NCBI GenBank assembly: GCA_022822785.1
Contig: JAJEAL010000053.1
Location: 1-64,000 of the forward strand
From: Candidatus Poribacteria bacterium
GTDB lineage: Bacteria > Poribacteria > WGA-4E > PCPOR2b
Length of the DNA stretch: 64,000 bases
Direction of reading: 5' to 3'
The position numbers and the translations under genes are program-made. Shown piece by piece: positions 20,054-37,824 of the stretch. The notes beneath the pieces were generated by a model that saw only the letters and a program-made list of their open reading frames with translations, was not told the DNA's origin and did not search any database. Numbering within the stretch: the stretch's first letter is position 1; each line of letters starts with the position of its first letter.

Positions 20054-21256
20054 ATGAACGACAGACGTTATCGCGCCGCTCTCATCGGTCTAGGGCGTAT
20101 CGCGGACACTATCGACGACGAGGTAATCGGCGATGGCTGGCTTGTACCGTTCAGCCACATGGGCAGTTACATGGATGTGCCCGAAGTGCAGGTGGTCGGC
20201 GCCGCTGATCTATACACGGAACAACGTGACGCATTTGGTGAGCGCTGGACCATCGAAGATACACATCTTTATGAGAATTACGAGGAGATGCTTGAGCGCG
20301 AGAAGCCCGACATCGTGAGCATTTGCACATCTGCGGCGCCACGCGCAAAGATTACGTTGGATATTGTGCGGATGGTACGTGAGGGACGGACAGGCGTGAA
20401 GTGTATCTGGGTAGAAAAGCCGATGGCGACCTCTCTGGAGGAAGCGGATGCAATGGTCGAAGGCTGCCGGGAAGCTGGTATCATCCTCATGATGAACGCA
20501 ATGCGCGCCTCCGATGTCTACTATCGCAGGGCCCGGGCACTTATCGACGAGGGTGTGCTGGGCAAGATGCTGCAAATAACCGCGCACGGTTCGGGAAATC
20601 TATCGCACATGGGTGTCCATTGGCTCGGTGCGATGTGTGTGTTGGCAGGTGAGAATGAGCGTGTCTCTTGGGTTGTGGGAGAGGTGGAGAGCGACGAAAA
20701 AGCCGCGGGCGATGCAGACCTTGCCGGTAACGCCTATCTGGCATTTGAAAACGGTGCACGTGGGTTCTGCCGTATGCTGCCAAGTGCTGCGTCAACATGG
20801 ACGCTTGACGCAATCGGTGAGCGCGGCACAATTCACCTCCGCAACGCCAACGACGGCTATGAGTTTGAGTTGTGGAAAATGGGAAAGATCTCTGACGACG
20901 CGCCCTCCACACCGGTGCGGCATATCTTTCCACGTCCCCAACGCATCTGGAGTGCCGGTGTAGGACAGGTCAAGGATGCTATCAACTGTATTGAAACGGG
21001 CAAAACGCCCAACTGCTCTGGCGATATGGGACGCCATCTGTTGGAACTCGCCATCGCTATCCGTGAATCGCACCGCCGGGGCAATGTGCGGGTAAACCTT
21101 CCGCTCCCCGATCGTAGCCTATATATCCGTTCAGCAGAAACGCTGAGCGGCGACACGCCGCGGGCAATAGCAAATCCCAACCGCCGTCAGCCAACGCATT
21201 TCCTCTCTGAGATAGCCCGGCGTGAGGGAATTGGGCGACGCCGTCCTGTTTCTTAA
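20054..21256 (+). CDS. Gfo/Idh/MocA family oxidoreductase (copy 1)
   Basis: 400 residues. N-terminal Rossmann fold (ALIGLGRIADTIDDE replaces the usual GxGxxG), cofactor-domain motif WVEKPMATSLEEADAM with the conserved EKP, and a beta-sheet C-terminal domain. Such NAD(P)-dependent dehydrogenases act on sugars, inositols or their derivatives. ATG at 20054 has AGGAGAATGAA upstream, 25 bp after the M81 gene. The last 30 residues are Arg-rich. Substrate unknown. Confidence 0.88.
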   Translation: MNDRRYRAALIGLGRIADTIDDEVIGDGWLVPFSHMGSYMDVPEVQVVGAADLYTEQRDAFGERWTIEDTHLYENYEEMLEREKPDIVSICTSAAPRAKITLDIVRMVREGRTGVKCIWVEKPMATSLEEADAMVEGCREAGIILMMNAMRASDVYYRRARALIDEGVLGKMLQITAHGSGNLSHMGVHWLGAMCVLAGENERVSWVVGEVESDEKAAGDADLAGNAYLAFENGARGFCRMLPSAASTWTLDAIGERGTIHLRNANDGYEFELWKMGKISDDAPSTPVRHIFPRPQRIWSAGVGQVKDAINCIETGKTPNCSGDMGRHLLELAIAIRESHRRGNVRVNLPLPDRSLYIRSAETLSGDTPRAIANPNRRQPTHFLSEIARREGIGRRRPVS

Positions 21257-32200: not shown

Positions 32201-33616
32201 TTACCATGTCTCCGGTCTTACCGCACAGGGCACAATAATCGAATCGACCATCCCGTGCAGCACCTTTTTATCTTCGGGGCATACGGTCGCTTGAATTCCA
32301 GCGAGGCGCACCTTGTCTCCAGTTGCGAAGTAATAGGGACGAAGTAGTGCCCGGCCCGGCATCGACAGAACTTCACTCCGATCGAAATCGTAATAGCTCA
32401 TCGTCAGTCGTTCCGTTCTGTGGAATCTTTGTAGGACGTAGGGCGTTCGATCAAAGCTGGTCAGTGCGTTCTCGACGGCGCTTTCCCAATCTTCGGTAGG
32501 AAGGTCATGTCCGATTGAAACCCCACGGCTGCCCCATGCCAATTCGGAGAAGCCGGACGGTTTGAGAACCAGTTCACGCTGTCGTTGTGAGACCGGAATA
32601 ATCTGCCGCCAGTTTGTAATCGGTTGTCCATCGACCTCAAGGTTTGGGATGACAGCGTGCGGCGGCAGCTCCCGCGGATCGAGCATCCATGTCTGTGGGA
32701 TGACACTCGGTAGGAATCGATAGGTTTTCTTCCCGAGCTCTCTCTGCCAAAAAGGTTGGAGGGACGGGTGATGAAACAGGGCAAACAGCAGCTTTTCCTC
32801 AAGGTATGTCTTCGGTGGTGGGGTCATTACCACGGTTCGCCTTTTGGCGCCGTAGAGCATCAAGTCCACTTTGGGGATATTTTTCAAATCGAATAGTTCA
32901 AAGAAACGGTAGAGCACATCAATCTGGACCTGTCCCTTATCTGATTCAAGGAATAGTGCATCTTCTGTAAAGATTACGTCGCGAGGTTTGATGGTGTAGG
33001 CATCCAAACCTACCTCTTGCAGTGCCGATGCCAACCATTGCATCTCGTCCCAATAATCCGCAGATTCATCGGACACAACAATCGCCACTGTGGGATGGTC
33101 AACCTTTGCGAGTGACCTGACCATCTCCGCAAAAGCGAGTTGCATCCCGTTGCTGCCGCCAATAATATCGTAGCCAAGTTTGGCATACTGTGCTGATAGG
33201 CTGCCCGTAAATCCCATGCCCCCGGGGACAGAATCCAGCTCGGTGATGGTAAAGCCGTCGGGGGTCTGCAAGATGTCGGGACGAATCACTCCTGGTAGCT
33301 GACTCTTAAACCGATTCATCCGTCCGAGCTCTATCACTGACTCAGGCTTCCCTTGATTAAAATACTCGGCAACCCAATCCGGTTGGATACCGCGTACACT
33401 CTGCGAATATAGCAGATTAGAGGCTCTGTAGAACCGCAATAAATGCTGTCCAAGTTCCTCAAGCCAGTCTAAGTGCTCTTGAAGAATCCAAAATGGCTCC
33501 GGCGCAATCCGCCACGTTACGTTGCTATCGGGATGAACGGTTTTCTGTTCGCCGGTGAAGAGCCCCCCTTTGGGAATCTGACTGTTAATGAACTGACATT
33601 TTTCTTCAGCGTTCAA
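32201..33616 (-). CDS. Uncharacterised protein, possible ATP-grasp-like fold
   Basis: 471 residues, no signal peptide. I do not recognise a named family. Segments reminiscent of ATP-grasp ligases are GFTITELDSVPGGMGFTG, LVLKPSGFSELAWGSRGVSI (a Lys followed by a Gly-rich loop) and a C-terminal PYVLQRFHRTERLTMSYY. It could ligate an amine or acid, as glutathionylspermidine synthase-like proteins do. No SD stands out before the ATG at 33616 (TGAACGCTGAAGA). It converges with the permease gene, 30 bp apart. Confidence 0.5.
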   Translation of the reverse strand: MNAEEKCQFINSQIPKGGLFTGEQKTVHPDSNVTWRIAPEPFWILQEHLDWLEELGQHLLRFYRASNLLYSQSVRGIQPDWVAEYFNQGKPESVIELGRMNRFKSQLPGVIRPDILQTPDGFTITELDSVPGGMGFTGSLSAQYAKLGYDIIGGSNGMQLAFAEMVRSLAKVDHPTVAIVVSDESADYWDEMQWLASALQEVGLDAYTIKPRDVIFTEDALFLESDKGQVQIDVLYRFFELFDLKNIPKVDLMLYGAKRRTVVMTPPPKTYLEEKLLFALFHHPSLQPFWQRELGKKTYRFLPSVIPQTWMLDPRELPPHAVIPNLEVDGQPITNWRQIIPVSQRQRELVLKPSGFSELAWGSRGVSIGHDLPTEDWESAVENALTSFDRTPYVLQRFHRTERLTMSYYDFDRSEVLSMPGRALLRPYYFATGDKVRLAGIQATVCPEDKKVLHGMVDSIIVPCAVRPETW

Positions 33617-33750: not shown

Positions 33751-33780
33751 TTGACATCCTGTCGATGAGTTTGTTAAAAT
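33751..33780 (+). promoter_or_regulatory. Sigma-70-like promoter for the aro leader transcript
   Basis: TTGACA (33751-33756) and TAAAAT (33775-33780) with an 18-bp spacer. Transcription would start near 33788, about 230 bases before the leader peptide, the gap being largely the MITE. Confidence 0.55.
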
Positions 33781-33854: not shown

Positions 33855-33994
33855 TAGGACTTACGCAGTTGAACGGTCAAAACCAACCCCCCTGCCCCCT
33901 TATCAAGGGGGTAGTTTGGCGATTCATCACCACTAGACACCGTTGCTAACGCCTGATAAATCAGGCAACTACAATCTGAAGTGCGTAACTCCTA
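33855..33994. mobile_element. MITE family 2, 140 bp, with TIRs and 6-bp flanking repeat
   Basis: Ends TAGGACTTACGCA (33855-33867) and TGCGTAACTCCTA (33982-33994) are inverted repeats matching at 12 of 13 positions. ACTATA flanks both sides (33849-33854 and 33995-34000), consistent with target-site duplication. No ORF inside; it carries a family C palindrome (CCCCCTTATCAAGGGGG). It lies between promoter and leader peptide of the DAHP synthase transcript. Confidence 0.8.
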
Positions 33995-34020: not shown

Positions 34021-34140
34021 ATGAAGAATTTCTGTCCATCTGCCCACATCGCACGCCAAACAACGCTGTACTTCCTTTATCTATTTTTGTTGTATTTGTG
34101 CTGCGATGGTGGGCGGGTAGGTCTCACATCTAAGATGTAG
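34021..34140 (+). CDS. Aromatic-amino-acid leader peptide (39 codons) for DAHP synthase attenuation
   Basis: ATG at 34021 after AAGAGGATT; stop at 34138-34140. The peptide is MKNFCPSAHIARQ... with a core TTLYFLYLFLLYLCC. Codons 17-26 contain three Tyr and two Phe (Tyr17, Phe18, Tyr20, Phe22, Tyr25) among Leu. Enrichment for the end products of the pathway is typical of attenuator leaders such as PheL. It precedes RNA arms and a terminator and then a DAHP synthase gene, so translation speed at these codons probably senses charged tRNA-Tyr/Phe. No domain is expected and the peptide itself need not act. Confidence 0.75.
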   Translation: MKNFCPSAHIARQTTLYFLYLFLLYLCCDGGRVGLTSKM

Positions 34141-34210
34141 AGATTTTCCCTTATTCGTTTTTTCTTTATGCCCATCATCGAAAATAGACTCGATGATGGG
34201 CGTTTTTTTT
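34042..34210 (+). promoter_or_regulatory. Transcription attenuator with alternative RNA pairings
   Basis: Four arms are visible. Arm 1 GCCCACATCG (34042-34051) can pair with arm 2 CGATGGTGGGC (34104-34114), leaving one bulged G. Arm 2 can instead pair fully with arm 3 GCCCATCATCG (34170-34180), one G-U. Arm 3 pairs with arm 4 in the terminator. Ribosomes stalled at the Tyr/Phe codons between arms 1 and 2 would hinder 1:2 pairing, allow 2:3 and suppress termination; free translation favours 1:2 and 3:4. The logic matches trp/phe attenuators. Confidence 0.7.
34170..34210 (+). terminator. Rho-independent terminator of the attenuator
   Basis: Perfect 12-bp stem GCCCATCATCGA / TCGATGATGGGC with an 8-nt loop, followed by G and eight T (34203-34210). 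It ends 22 bases before the DAHP synthase start codon, so read-through is needed for expression. Confidence 0.9.
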
Positions 34211-34232: not shown

Positions 34233-35297
34233 ATGCAGACTAACGGTACGATCGACAGAAATGTCAAAGGCTATCAAACCCTAATGAGTCCAAGGCAGTT
34301 GCTAACGGATTTGCCGAGAACAGATGCGATGACGCAGACAGTCCAACACGGCAGAACAAGTATCAGAAATATCTTGGACGGCACCGACTCACGAAAATTT
34401 GTCATTGTTGGGCCGTGTTCCATCCATGATACGGAGGCTGCCCACGACTATGCAGCAAGACTGAAAGCGATTTCGGATGCTGTTTCAGATCGTGTAGCTG
34501 TTATCGTCAGGTCCTACTTTGAAAAACCGCGCACCAATTTGGGTTGGAAAGGCTTAATCTATGACCCGCATCTAAACGGGGCAGGCAATATCAAGGATGG
34601 ATTATATATCTCGAGAAGAATATTAATGGATAATCTTGAAATCGGATTGCCGTGTGCCACTGAATACCTTGAAACTTTCACGCCTCAATATAACTCCGAT
34701 CTGGTTTCATGGGCAGCAATCGGTGCCCGAACTACTGAATCTCCACAACATAGGCAACTCGCTTCCGGGCTCTCAATGCCGGTTGGTTTCAAAAACAGCA
34801 CACAGGGCGACATCTCCGTTGCGGTCAATGCCATCCTATCTGCAAACGGTGAGCACTCTTTTCTGGGGATTGATGGGTACGGTGCCCCGTCTGTTGTGCG
34901 AACGACAGGCAATCCATATACGCACATTGTAATAAGGGGGAGCAATACAGGTACAAATTATGATTCACAAAGCGTTCAAGAGATTCAAGTGATGCTAACG
35001 GAAGCGGATCTGCCTCCAAATGTTGTGATAGATTGCAGCCACGGAAATTCAGAGAAAGATTACAGTAGACAGCCGGCTGTTTTTGAGGACATCTTGAAGC
35101 AGATTCGTGATGGAAATGATAGGATTGTTGGAATTATGCTCGAATCGAATATTAATGCTGGGAGCCAGAAAATACCTTCTGACTTAACGGGGTTCGATCG
35201 ATCCACGCTTGAATACGGTGTTTCCGTCACCGATAGTTGTATCGATTTGGAGACAACCGCGTCCTTGCTCAAGGAGGCATATAAAAATCTCGTTTGA
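34233..35297 (+). CDS. aroF: 3-deoxy-7-phosphoheptulonate (DAHP) synthase, class I
   Basis: ATG at 34233 has ATAGGAGGCGGCG upstream; 354 residues, as AroF/G/H. Motifs: FVIVGPCSIHD, VRSYFEKPRTNLGWKGLI (substrate loop), GARTTESPQHRQLASGLSMP, FKNSTQGD and IDCSHGNSEKD. It condenses phosphoenolpyruvate with erythrose 4-phosphate, the first step to aromatic amino acids. Whether it is Tyr- or Phe-inhibited cannot be told; the leader peptide contains codons for both. Expression is probably attenuated upstream. The symbol is given for the family, not for a proven isozyme. Confidence 0.94.
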   Translation: MQTNGTIDRNVKGYQTLMSPRQLLTDLPRTDAMTQTVQHGRTSIRNILDGTDSRKFVIVGPCSIHDTEAAHDYAARLKAISDAVSDRVAVIVRSYFEKPRTNLGWKGLIYDPHLNGAGNIKDGLYISRRILMDNLEIGLPCATEYLETFTPQYNSDLVSWAAIGARTTESPQHRQLASGLSMPVGFKNSTQGDISVAVNAILSANGEHSFLGIDGYGAPSVVRTTGNPYTHIVIRGSNTGTNYDSQSVQEIQVMLTEADLPPNVVIDCSHGNSEKDYSRQPAVFEDILKQIRDGNDRIVGIMLESNINAGSQKIPSDLTGFDRSTLEYGVSVTDSCIDLETTASLLKEAYKNLV

Positions 35298-35334: not shown

Positions 35335-36096
35335 ATGGCATGGTATGAAACCTTTTTTGATGAAAATTACCTCAAGGAGTATGAGAAAGGGCTTACGCTT
35401 GAGCGAGCCCAGAAAGAGGCGGATTTCATCAACAGTACGTTGAACCTTCCGCAGCCTGCTGAAGGGGCGCGAATCTTGGATCTTTGTTGCGGACACGGCA
35501 GGCATACCGTCGAACTCGCAGCAGCGGGCTACTCGATGATTGGGCAGGATCTCTCAGCCACCTTCCTCGATCTTGCGAAAGATGCCGCTGCAGCGCGCAA
35601 TCTTCAGATTCGGTTCATCCAGGCCGATATGAGGCAGATTCCATTTGAGCGCGAGTTAGATGCCGTCATCAATCTGTTCTCGGCGTTTGGATATTTTGAC
35701 GACGATGCGGAGAATCAGAAAGTCCTCGACGCCGTTGGGAGGGCGTTAAAGCCGGGGGGTAAGTTCCTCATTGATCTTCTCAATACTCTGCGGATAATAC
35801 GCGATTTTCTCCCTCAAAGCTGGGATGAACTTTCAGATGGTACAGTTGTCCTTACTAAACGAAATTACAATATCCTGACAGGGTATAATGAAGAATGTCG
35901 CACCTATATCGCTCCTGACGGTAGCAAGCGGGAAATTCACCTAGCTTTGCGGTTGTACTTCTATCCTGAGTTTACAGAGATGCTTAACCGTGTAGGTCTT
36001 GCGCCGATTCAAGTATTCGGCGATTATGATGGCAGCGAGTACACATGGGATTCAAAGCGGATGATTGTTTTGGCTGAAAAGCAGCGTGAAACATAA
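35335..36096 (+). CDS. Class I SAM-dependent methyltransferase
   Basis: 253 residues. AdoMet motif I ILDLCCGHGRHTVELAAAGY, motif II region GQDLSATFLDLAKD, and acidic FIQADMRQIPFERELDAVIN, then LKPGGKFLIDLLN. The N-terminal WYETFFDENYLKEYEKGLT is typical of methyltransferases fused or related to ubiquinone/menaquinone types. The target is unknown; no close operon partner, but it lies 38 bp after the aro gene, so it may share its transcript. Confidence 0.88.
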   Translation: MAWYETFFDENYLKEYEKGLTLERAQKEADFINSTLNLPQPAEGARILDLCCGHGRHTVELAAAGYSMIGQDLSATFLDLAKDAAAARNLQIRFIQADMRQIPFERELDAVINLFSAFGYFDDDAENQKVLDAVGRALKPGGKFLIDLLNTLRIIRDFLPQSWDELSDGTVVLTKRNYNILTGYNEECRTYIAPDGSKREIHLALRLYFYPEFTEMLNRVGLAPIQVFGDYDGSEYTWDSKRMIVLAEKQRET

Positions 36097-36288
36097 GTAC
36101 GCGTAAAAGGAGCAGGTCAAAGAATCAAAAGGCAATCTTCTTTCACATTTTACGTTTCACGGAAGGAGGTGATGAAGGTGGGGTTGACAGCTACCGACGA
36201 ACCGGGTTTACGTGATACTGAAGACAATTTGACATCGTTAGAACAACGGACGGAACCTAGCACTATTACAAAAAAGGAGAATTACACA

Positions 36289-37824
36289 GTGTCTGAGAAA
36301 GTTTACATTTTTGATACTACCCTGCGGGATGCCGAACAAACACCCGGTGCCGCGCTAAATCTTGCAGAAAAGCTGGAAATCGCAAAGCATCTCGCAAAAC
36401 TGAAGGTCGATATTATCGAAGCCGGGTTCCCCGTCTCATCACCCGGCGATTTTGATGCGGTGACGCGGATCGCCAATGAGGTCGAGGGTCCCGAAATCTG
36501 TGCGCTTTCACGCGTGGTTGAGAAGGATATCACCGCGGCGTGGGGCGCGATTAAAGATGCACAGAAACCCCGTATTCACACATTCGTTGGTACATCACCC
36601 ATTCACCGGGAACGGATCACACGCACCTCTCCCGAAGAGACGCTGAAAATGGCGATTGACGCTGTCACCTACGCGAAGAGTCTATCCGCCGGGCACCCCG
36701 ATGCAGTTATCGAATTTTCGCCAATGGACGCCGGACGCACGGAGCCAAGCTATCTCTATGAAGTGGTCGAGGCGACAATTGCGGCGGGGGCAACAGTTGT
36801 GAATATCCCCGAAACAGTGGGTTGGACTGTGCCGGCTGAATTTGGGAAACTGATTGCGGACATCAAAACGAATGTTCCAAACGTTGATCAAGCAATTATC
36901 AGCGTCCACTGTCATAATGACCTTGGATTCGCTGTTGCCAACAGCCTTCAAGCGATTGAGAACGGGGCGAGGCAGGTTGAGTGCACAATCAATGGACTCG
37001 GTGAACGCGCTGGTAACACATCGCTCGAAGAGGTCGTGATGGCAATCCGAACCCGTCGAGATTATTACGGCGCCTACTATACCGACATCAATACGAAAGA
37101 AATCGTTCCGATTAGTCGTCGTGTTAGTCGGACAATGGGAATACCTGTCCAACCGAACAAAGCCATCGTTGGTGAGAATGCTTTTGCACACAGCTCTGGC
37201 ATCCATCAAGATGGCGTTATCAAGCAGCGGAATACTTTCGAGATTATCGATCCGGCGGATGTGGGTTGGCAGGAGAGTCAGATTATCCTCAGTCCGCGAT
37301 CCGGGCGCAACGCACTGAGGCACCGTCTGAATGCGCTCGGTTATGAGGTGGATCAAGAACAGCTCGAAAAAATCTATGAACGATTTCTCAGTGTCGCCGA
37401 TAAGAAGAAAGAGGTTCACGACGCCGACCTTGAGGCAATTATGAGGGATGAGGTCCGATCTATTCCCGAAACCTTCCAATTGGAGTACATTCAGGTGGTC
37501 AGCGGCACGAAAATTTCTCCAACGACGACGGTCGGCGTCCGCACCGAAGCGGGTGTCGTTGAGGAAGCATCCACCGGCGATGGTCCCGTCGATGCCTCCT
37601 ACAAGGCGATCGATCGGGTCGCCAAGATTCCTCTCTTACTCACGGACTATAACATCAGGGCTGTGACCGAGGGGAAGGATGCCATCGGTGAGGTCACAAT
37701 CAGGGTGCAGGACAACGGGAATGTGATTATTGGGCACGGTGCGAGCACGGACATTATTGAAGCGAGCGCGAAAGCCTATATTGATGCCATTAACAAGGTT
37801 GTCCACCTGCGCTACGACGAATAA
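36289..37824 (+). CDS. leuA: 2-isopropylmalate synthase
   Basis: The GTG at 36289 (AAAGGAGAATTACACA upstream) starts just before the conserved YIFDTTLRDAEQTPG and gives 511 residues, normal for LeuA; an alternative ATG at 36169 or 36172, also with a strong SD (AAGGAGGTG), adds a 40-residue unrelated N-terminus. HMGL barrel motifs: HCHNDLGFAVANSLQAI, GERAGNTSLEEVVMA and HSSGIHQDGVIKQ. The C-terminal LeuA regulatory domain is present (TTVGVRTEAGVVEEA). It condenses acetyl-CoA with 2-oxoisovalerate, first step of leucine synthesis. No leuCDB genes adjoin. Confidence 0.93.
   Translation: MSEKVYIFDTTLRDAEQTPGAALNLAEKLEIAKHLAKLKVDIIEAGFPVSSPGDFDAVTRIANEVEGPEICALSRVVEKDITAAWGAIKDAQKPRIHTFVGTSPIHRERITRTSPEETLKMAIDAVTYAKSLSAGHPDAVIEFSPMDAGRTEPSYLYEVVEATIAAGATVVNIPETVGWTVPAEFGKLIADIKTNVPNVDQAIISVHCHNDLGFAVANSLQAIENGARQVECTINGLGERAGNTSLEEVVMAIRTRRDYYGAYYTDINTKEIVPISRRVSRTMGIPVQPNKAIVGENAFAHSSGIHQDGVIKQRNTFEIIDPADVGWQESQIILSPRSGRNALRHRLNALGYEVDQEQLEKIYERFLSVADKKKEVHDADLEAIMRDEVRSIPETFQLEYIQVVSGTKISPTTTVGVRTEAGVVEEASTGDGPVDASYKAIDRVAKIPLLLTDYNIRAVTEGKDAIGEVTIRVQDNGNVIIGHGASTDIIEASAKAYIDAINKVVHLRYDE

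What the first reader, a model, noticed from the sequence alone, without database searches (positions are those of the whole stretch)
34021..34210. Textbook attenuator with Tyr/Phe leader peptide controlling DAHP synthase
The leader peptide TTLYFLYLFLLYLCC has three Tyr and two Phe codons in ten. Arm 1 (34042-34051), arm 2 (34104-34114), arm 3 (34170-34180) and the 12-bp terminator (34170-34201, eight T) give mutually exclusive 1:2, 2:3 and 3:4 pairings, just upstream of a DAHP synthase gene. I infer sensing of charged tRNA-Tyr/Phe. Such control is known for phe and trp operons in enterobacteria. One caution: arm 1 lies upstream of the control codons, so the stalled ribosome would have to sit within the 52-nt loop and hinder, not cover, arm 1.
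Basis: partly seen in the sequence, partly recalled or inferred. Interest (0 to 1): 0.75.

Follow-up and report, generated by a model that had tools for sequence, protein, structure and literature searches.

The report
Leucine-plus-tyrosine attenuator of aroF-leuA operon
In a little-studied bacterial phylum (Poribacteria), a short decoy gene packed with leucine, tyrosine and phenylalanine codons appears to switch on one operon that holds the first enzymes of both the aromatic and the leucine pathways, and this switch has survived even where the aromatic enzyme behind it was swapped for a different type.

Summary
Window 34021-34210 (Candidatus Poribacteria) holds a 39-codon leader ORF, a 14-bp terminator with T8, and an 11-bp antiterminator that excludes it (0/3000 shuffles). 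(2) The operon is aroF - methyltransferase - leuA. (3) Across the order, 61 of 62 readable genomes have such a leader upstream of a DAHP synthase-leuA operon; one genus has (Leu-Tyr)4-6 runs. Outside family f1 the DAHP synthase is the other type (I-beta), so the leader stayed while the enzyme was replaced; G008 carries both. (4) Leu is 22-38% of the 16 codons before arm 2 in families f1-f3 (12-19% in f4), but 2% in Tyr/Phe leaders of DAHP synthases not followed by leuA. The trpE leader of these genomes is WHWW. Best reading: a ribosome-mediated attenuator sensing leucine and aromatic shortage together. No expression data exist. New variant of a known kind.

The parts
33751..33780 (+). sigma-70-like promoter (TTGACA-18-TAAAAT) for the operon
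   Evidence: 11 of 12 consensus matches; similar TTGACA/-10 boxes seen upstream of the G007, G008, G011 and G014 leaders. Prediction only.
34021..34140 (+). leader ORF, 39 codons
   Evidence: orthologous leaders in five other genomes of family f1 with the I-alpha enzyme
34066..34098 (+). control codons LYFLYLFLLYL (6 Leu, 3 Tyr, 2 Phe)
   Evidence: 0/3000 shuffles; matching runs in 61 genomes
34042..34053 (+). arm 1, pairs with arm 2; local to this genus and a few relatives
   Evidence: -29.7 kcal/mol, 0/200 shuffles here but significant in only 5/61 relatives
34104..34114 (+). arm 2 (CGATGGTGGGC), antiterminator 5' half, inside the leader ORF
   Evidence: 2:3 conserved 59/61, 97% of cells paired
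34119..34146 (+). accessory hairpin in the 2:3 loop, holds the leader stop codon
   Evidence: predicted in every stalled state; not tested for conservation
34168..34181 (+). arm 3, shared by antiterminator and terminator
34190..34210 (+). arm 4 and T8 tract of the intrinsic terminator
   Evidence: 98% of cells paired with more covariation than every shuffle in A4
34233..35297 (+). aroF-type DAHP synthase, class I-alpha
   Evidence: TIGR00034 434.8 bits, PRK12755 465.4 bits
35335..36096 (+). class I SAM methyltransferase in the operon, specific function unknown
   Evidence: only sub-threshold methyltransferase families; between aroF and leuA in G000, G002, G003, G005 and G008, only a remnant there in G001, absent there in G006; shortened copy in G007
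36169..37824 (+). leuA, 2-isopropylmalate synthase, last operon gene
   Evidence: TIGR00973 700 bits; behind DAHP synthase in all f1-f4 genomes read

Best explanation
A ribosome-mediated transcription attenuator that reads two pathways at once. RNA polymerase makes the leader and a ribosome translates it. If charged tRNA-Leu, tRNA-Tyr or tRNA-Phe is scarce, the ribosome stalls in the Leu/Tyr/Phe run (34066-34098). Its leading edge then lies at or before arm 2, and arm 1 is on its other side, so arm 2 pairs with arm 3 as soon as arm 3 is made, arm 4 is left without a partner, and polymerase reads through into aroF - methyltransferase - leuA. If all three are plentiful, the ribosome passes the run. 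In this genus it stops 24 nt past arm 2 and arm 1 re-occupies arm 2; in most of the order the stop codon lies inside arm 2 and the terminating ribosome masks it. Either way 3:4 forms and transcription ends at the T8 tract. Sequence, predicted structure, conservation and codon content are shown; stalling, termination and induction are inferred.
For: Window anatomy and chance tests. With arm 4 not yet made and a ribosome on any control codon tested, 2:3 is the predicted fold (34110 pairs 34174 with p 0.999); with no ribosome or one at the stop codon, 1:2 forms. A leader of this kind is present in 61 of 62 readable genomes of families f1-f4, and the exception is a contig end. 2:3 is significant in 59/61; 97-98% of cells are paired against 24-77% when slid. 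Leader translation: (Leu-Tyr) tract dN/dS 0.14 in genus g8, with Tyr kept in 120/120 and Leu in 103/120 cells. Leu tracks leuA: 22-38% of the 16 codons before arm 2 in families f1-f3, 12-19% in f4, against 2% in nine DAHP synthase leaders without leuA (no leuA next to those genes) and 7.7% in the operon's own proteins. Codon choice follows the operon in these genomes: trpE leaders have WHWW and an ilvB leader has VLFLI. Extra I-beta copies away from leuA have no leader.
Against: No transcript, ribosome-profiling or expression data exist. Leu positions in the (Leu-Tyr) run drift to Phe, Val or Met more than Tyr drifts, and Leu is weaker in family f4, so Leu could be the weaker input. In the window the stop codon lies past arm 2, so the terminating ribosome does not mask it and 1:2 must do this work, yet 1:2 is weak in some close relatives (G001, 42/200). 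G005 has lost arm 2 by a 30-nt in-frame deletion. The Shine-Dalgarno sequence is poor in some orthologues. The comparison of leaders with and without leuA is phylogenetically uneven: one phylum against nine leaders from about five lineages.
Confidence: 0.78

Rival explanations
1. A Tyr/Phe-only attenuator. Leu codons are neutral hydrophobic spacers, and leuA is simply co-transcribed.
For: Tyr is invariant (120/120) while Leu drifts to Phe/Val/Met (103/120 kept) in the (Leu-Tyr) run. Tyr/Phe leaders exist for DAHP synthase alone in several phyla and in C. glutamicum (PMC4046766).
Against: Leu is 22-38% of the run in families f1-f3, against 2% in leaders of DAHP synthase without leuA and 7.7% background. 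Other hydrophobics (Val, Ile) are at most 12%. All leader-bearing operons read contain leuA.
Confidence: 0.17
2. The leader ORF encodes a small hydrophobic membrane peptide, and the terminator is constitutive.
For: The run is hydrophobic and some leaders exceed 60 codons.
Against: The peptide is poorly conserved outside the run and arm 2. Arm 2 overlaps its codons and pairs with arm 3 in 59/61 genomes. The same genomes use Trp codons before trpE.
Confidence: 0.02
3. A translation-independent RNA switch (riboswitch, T-box or protein-bound leader) with a chance ORF.
For: The alternative hairpins alone would fit.
Against: No Rfam match at gathering score in the window, and none credible at E up to 5 around the leader. 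The ORF is under purifying selection, and the loop between the arms varies freely in sequence and length.
Confidence: 0.03

Closest known systems
E. coli/Salmonella pheA and trp leaders (ribosome-mediated attenuators; layout from own knowledge, list of operons in PMC1183508)
   Same: Leader ORF with codons of the end product, mutually exclusive antiterminator and terminator, stall-dependent read-through
   Different: Here the control codons lie between arms 1 and 2 instead of in arm 1; 1:2 is not conserved; two unrelated pathways are represented in one run
C. glutamicum aroF leader (Phe-Tyr-Phe) and leuA leader (four Leu), predicted as two separate attenuators (PMC4046766)
   Same: Aromatic codons before a DAHP synthase and Leu codons before leuA
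   Different: In Poribacteria both are fused in one leader of one operon
Multi-amino-acid leaders such as ilvGMEDA (Ile/Val/Leu) and thrABC (Thr/Ile) (own knowledge)
   Same: Several amino acids in one run
   Different: Those amino acids share a pathway; Leu and Tyr/Phe do not share committed steps
Tyr/Phe leaders of class I-alpha DAHP synthase in Desulfobacterota, Chloroflexi and Latescibacterota (found here)
   Same: Same gene family, Tyr/Phe run, terminator
   Different: Almost no Leu codons, no leuA next to the gene

Membership tests
Ribosome-mediated amino-acid transcription attenuator | Short translated leader ORF upstream of a biosynthetic operon | tested here: met
   34021-34140; dN/dS 0.14 in the control run of genus g8 and 0.12 in the window's genus (3 distinct sequences only)
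Ribosome-mediated amino-acid transcription attenuator | Run of codons for the operon's end product(s) | tested here: met
   Leu/Tyr/Phe run before a DAHP synthase-leuA operon; Leu tracks leuA
Ribosome-mediated amino-acid transcription attenuator | Intrinsic terminator between leader and first gene | tested here: met
Ribosome-mediated amino-acid transcription attenuator | Antiterminator that excludes the terminator, conserved | tested here: met
   59/61; pair counts
Ribosome-mediated amino-acid transcription attenuator | Stalled ribosome raises read-through | not testable with these tools
   Needs an experiment; folding with ribosome masks agrees
trp-type layout (control codons in arm 1, conserved 1:2 protector) | Control codons inside arm 1 and conserved 1:2 pairing | tested here: not met
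   Run lies between arms 1 and 2; 1:2 significant in 5/61
T-box or known riboswitch | Match to an Rfam family | tested here: not met
Class I-alpha DAHP synthase (aroFGH) | Score above family cut-off | tested here: met
   TIGR00034 434.8 bits against 173.2
2-isopropylmalate synthase LeuA | Score above family cut-off | tested here: met
   TIGR00973 700.3 bits against 598.7

The most novel reading that the evidence does not exclude
An order-wide cross-pathway attenuator in which one leader run acts as an OR gate for leucine and tyrosine/phenylalanine starvation over a DAHP synthase-leuA operon, kept for so long that the regulated DAHP synthase was replaced by another class underneath a conserved switch.
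Probability: 0.7. Interest if true: 0.7.

Novelty: new variant of a known kind. Interest (0 to 1): 0.6.

Why it matters
I know of no described attenuator that couples two pathways without shared committed steps, and the searches here found none. It offers a clean case of a regulatory RNA outliving its enzyme: I-beta to I-alpha replacement, with G008 (I-beta, I-alpha, methyltransferase, leuA) as a possible intermediate. The (Leu-Tyr)4-6 runs are a natural test bed for how two amino acids share one stall region. It also points to classical attenuation at several operons in an uncultured phylum.

Tried and rejected
Reading relatives in the wrong orientation first gave no leader; corrected. MFE folding of the full transcript with a ribosome mask keeps the terminator in every state because 3:4 is slightly more stable than 2:3; the relevant test is the transcript before arm 4 exists. 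The first terminator finder failed on the f3 genomes (stopped with an error) and was replaced. Arm 1 as a general part of the switch was rejected (5/61). Rfam gave nothing. A prephenate dehydratase (pheA) leader was sought and not found. Duplicate DAHP synthases were tested as leader carriers and are not. A family scan of three proteins failed on wrong coordinates and was redone with two.

Full report
WHAT IS IN THE WINDOW. The window belongs to Candidatus Poribacteria: a genome of the same genus (G002) carries a contig of the same length and match position as JAJECO010000044.1, titled Candidatus Poribacteria. The leader ORF is 34021-34140. Its run 34066-34098 reads L Y F L Y L F L L Y L, and 0 of 3000 dinucleotide shuffles of the ORF give 11 Leu/Tyr/Phe in 11. 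Energies are 1:2 -29.7, 2:3 -21.7 and 3:4 -23.3 kcal/mol; 2:3 beats 3000 of 3000 shuffles. A sigma-70-like promoter lies at 33751-33780. The operon is aroF (class I-alpha DAHP synthase), a methyltransferase of unknown role, and leuA.

RELATIVES. In the phylum (85 genomes held) only seven genomes carry this class I-alpha enzyme, all in family f1. Six of them (G000, G001, G002, G003, G005, G006) carry the leader directly in front of it; in G008 the leader stands before a type I-beta gene and the I-alpha gene follows. All seven have leuA behind it. In families f2, f3 and f4 leuA follows the other type of DAHP synthase (I-beta, TIGR01361, 386 bits), and upstream of that gene sits a leader of the same kind. 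Of 62 genomes of f1-f4 with a readable terminator region, 61 have a leader; the exception starts 128 bases before the gene. Genus g8 has runs such as GLYLYLYLYLYLYSNDRW-stop. A four-fold (Leu/Phe)-Tyr pattern occurs in g8 essentially at this one place per genome. Outside these families, G062 (f5) and G060 (f10) have I-beta next to leuA but no terminator or leader, so the gene pair seems older than the leader.

ENZYME SWAP. G007 has leader, I-beta, a shortened methyltransferase, leuA. G008 has leader, I-beta, I-alpha, methyltransferase, leuA. G000-G003 have leader, I-alpha, leuA and no I-beta gene anywhere at E 1e-30. The simplest order is insertion of I-alpha and then loss of I-beta, under a leader that stayed; this ordering is inference, no tree was built. 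I-beta copies elsewhere in G004, G005 and G009 lack a leader.

STRUCTURE ACROSS THE ORDER. 2:3 is better than at least 190 of 200 shuffles in 59 of 61 leaders. On alignments of 12 (f1, f2, f4) and 45 (f3) sequences, 97.0% and 98.1% of cells pair, against 24-77% when slid. 3:4 pairs in 98.1% and 99.4% of cells, with more covariation than all 500 shuffles in the first set. Covariation for 2:3 exceeds all 500 shuffles in the 45-sequence set but not in the 12-sequence set, where the arms hardly vary. The 2:3 arms have different sequences in f1 (CGATGGTGGGC with GCCCATCATCG) and f3 (GGTGGTGA with TCACCACC) yet keep pairing. 1:2 is significant in five leaders only. In most f3 leaders the stop codon TGA closes arm 2; in the window's genus the stop is about 24 nt past arm 2.

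MECHANISM. With arm 4 not yet made, ribosome masks on the control codons give 2:3 with near certainty, and no ribosome or a ribosome at the stop gives 1:2. The footprint assumed (12 nt ahead of the first base of the A-site codon) is from own knowledge. Arm 1 in this genus may compensate for the downstream shift of the stop codon; this is inference.

IS LEUCINE REALLY SENSED? For: 22-38% Leu in the 16 codons before arm 2 in families f1-f3, 12-19% in f4; 2% in nine DAHP synthase leaders without leuA in Chloroflexi, Desulfobacterota, Latescibacterota and others; 7.7% in the operon proteins. In the same genomes the trpE leader has WHWW and the ilvB leader of several f3 genomes has VLFLI. Against: within the g8 run Tyr never changes (120/120 cells) and Leu changes in 17 of 120, mostly to Phe (10) or Val (6). 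I put the leucine input at about 0.8 and the Tyr/Phe input at about 0.95.

KNOWN OR NEW. Separate aroF (Phe-Tyr-Phe) and leuA (Leu4) leaders are predicted in C. glutamicum (PMC4046766), and leu, ilv, thr, phe, trp and his attenuators are classical (PMC1183508). Searches of open full texts listed no attenuator joining leucine and tyrosine and no attenuation study in Poribacteria; most subscription papers were not searchable. Hence new variant of a known kind.

LIMITS. The relatives are largely metagenome assemblies. No expression data. Shuffle counts are per genome and genomes are related. The no-leuA controls were chosen by a Tyr/Phe/Trp screen, but Leu was not part of that screen.

Noticed in passing
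L205 (G000:C86, upstream of trpE at 20627), also L204, L206, L209: A trp-type leader (MQTLNRQPQFHIPSHHWHWWRCVEGSGMPLLR) with terminator stands before trpE in G000, G001, G006 and G019: classical trp attenuation in Poribacteria.
   Followed up: partly
L186-L189, upstream of ilvB: A conserved MSVIASQRVLFLI... leader with terminator before acetolactate synthase in genera g8 and g10, likely a branched-chain attenuator.
   Followed up: no
L018, L024, L035, L038, L040, L047, L070, L073, L076: Tyr/Phe leaders (for example YRYFYFYFYYAF) with terminators before class I-alpha DAHP synthase in Chloroflexi, Desulfobacterota and Latescibacterota.
   Followed up: partly
L002 (G005:C54): 30-nt in-frame deletion removes arm 2 from the leader: a natural attenuator mutant predicted to terminate always; this genome also has a second, leaderless I-beta DAHP synthase (L228).
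   Followed up: partly
window 33857-33992: About 135 bp with inverted ends (GGACTTACGCA ... TGCGTAACTCC) between promoter and leader, with CTATAT on both sides: looks like a small mobile insertion lengthening the 5' UTR. Only one copy in the window.
   Followed up: partly
window 32201-33616 (-): 471-aa divergent gene next to the operon, conserved in most of family f1, without any NCBIfam match.
   Followed up: no
window 35335-36096: Methyltransferase inside the aroF-leuA operon of family f1, degenerate in G001 and G007: possibly relic cargo.
   Followed up: no
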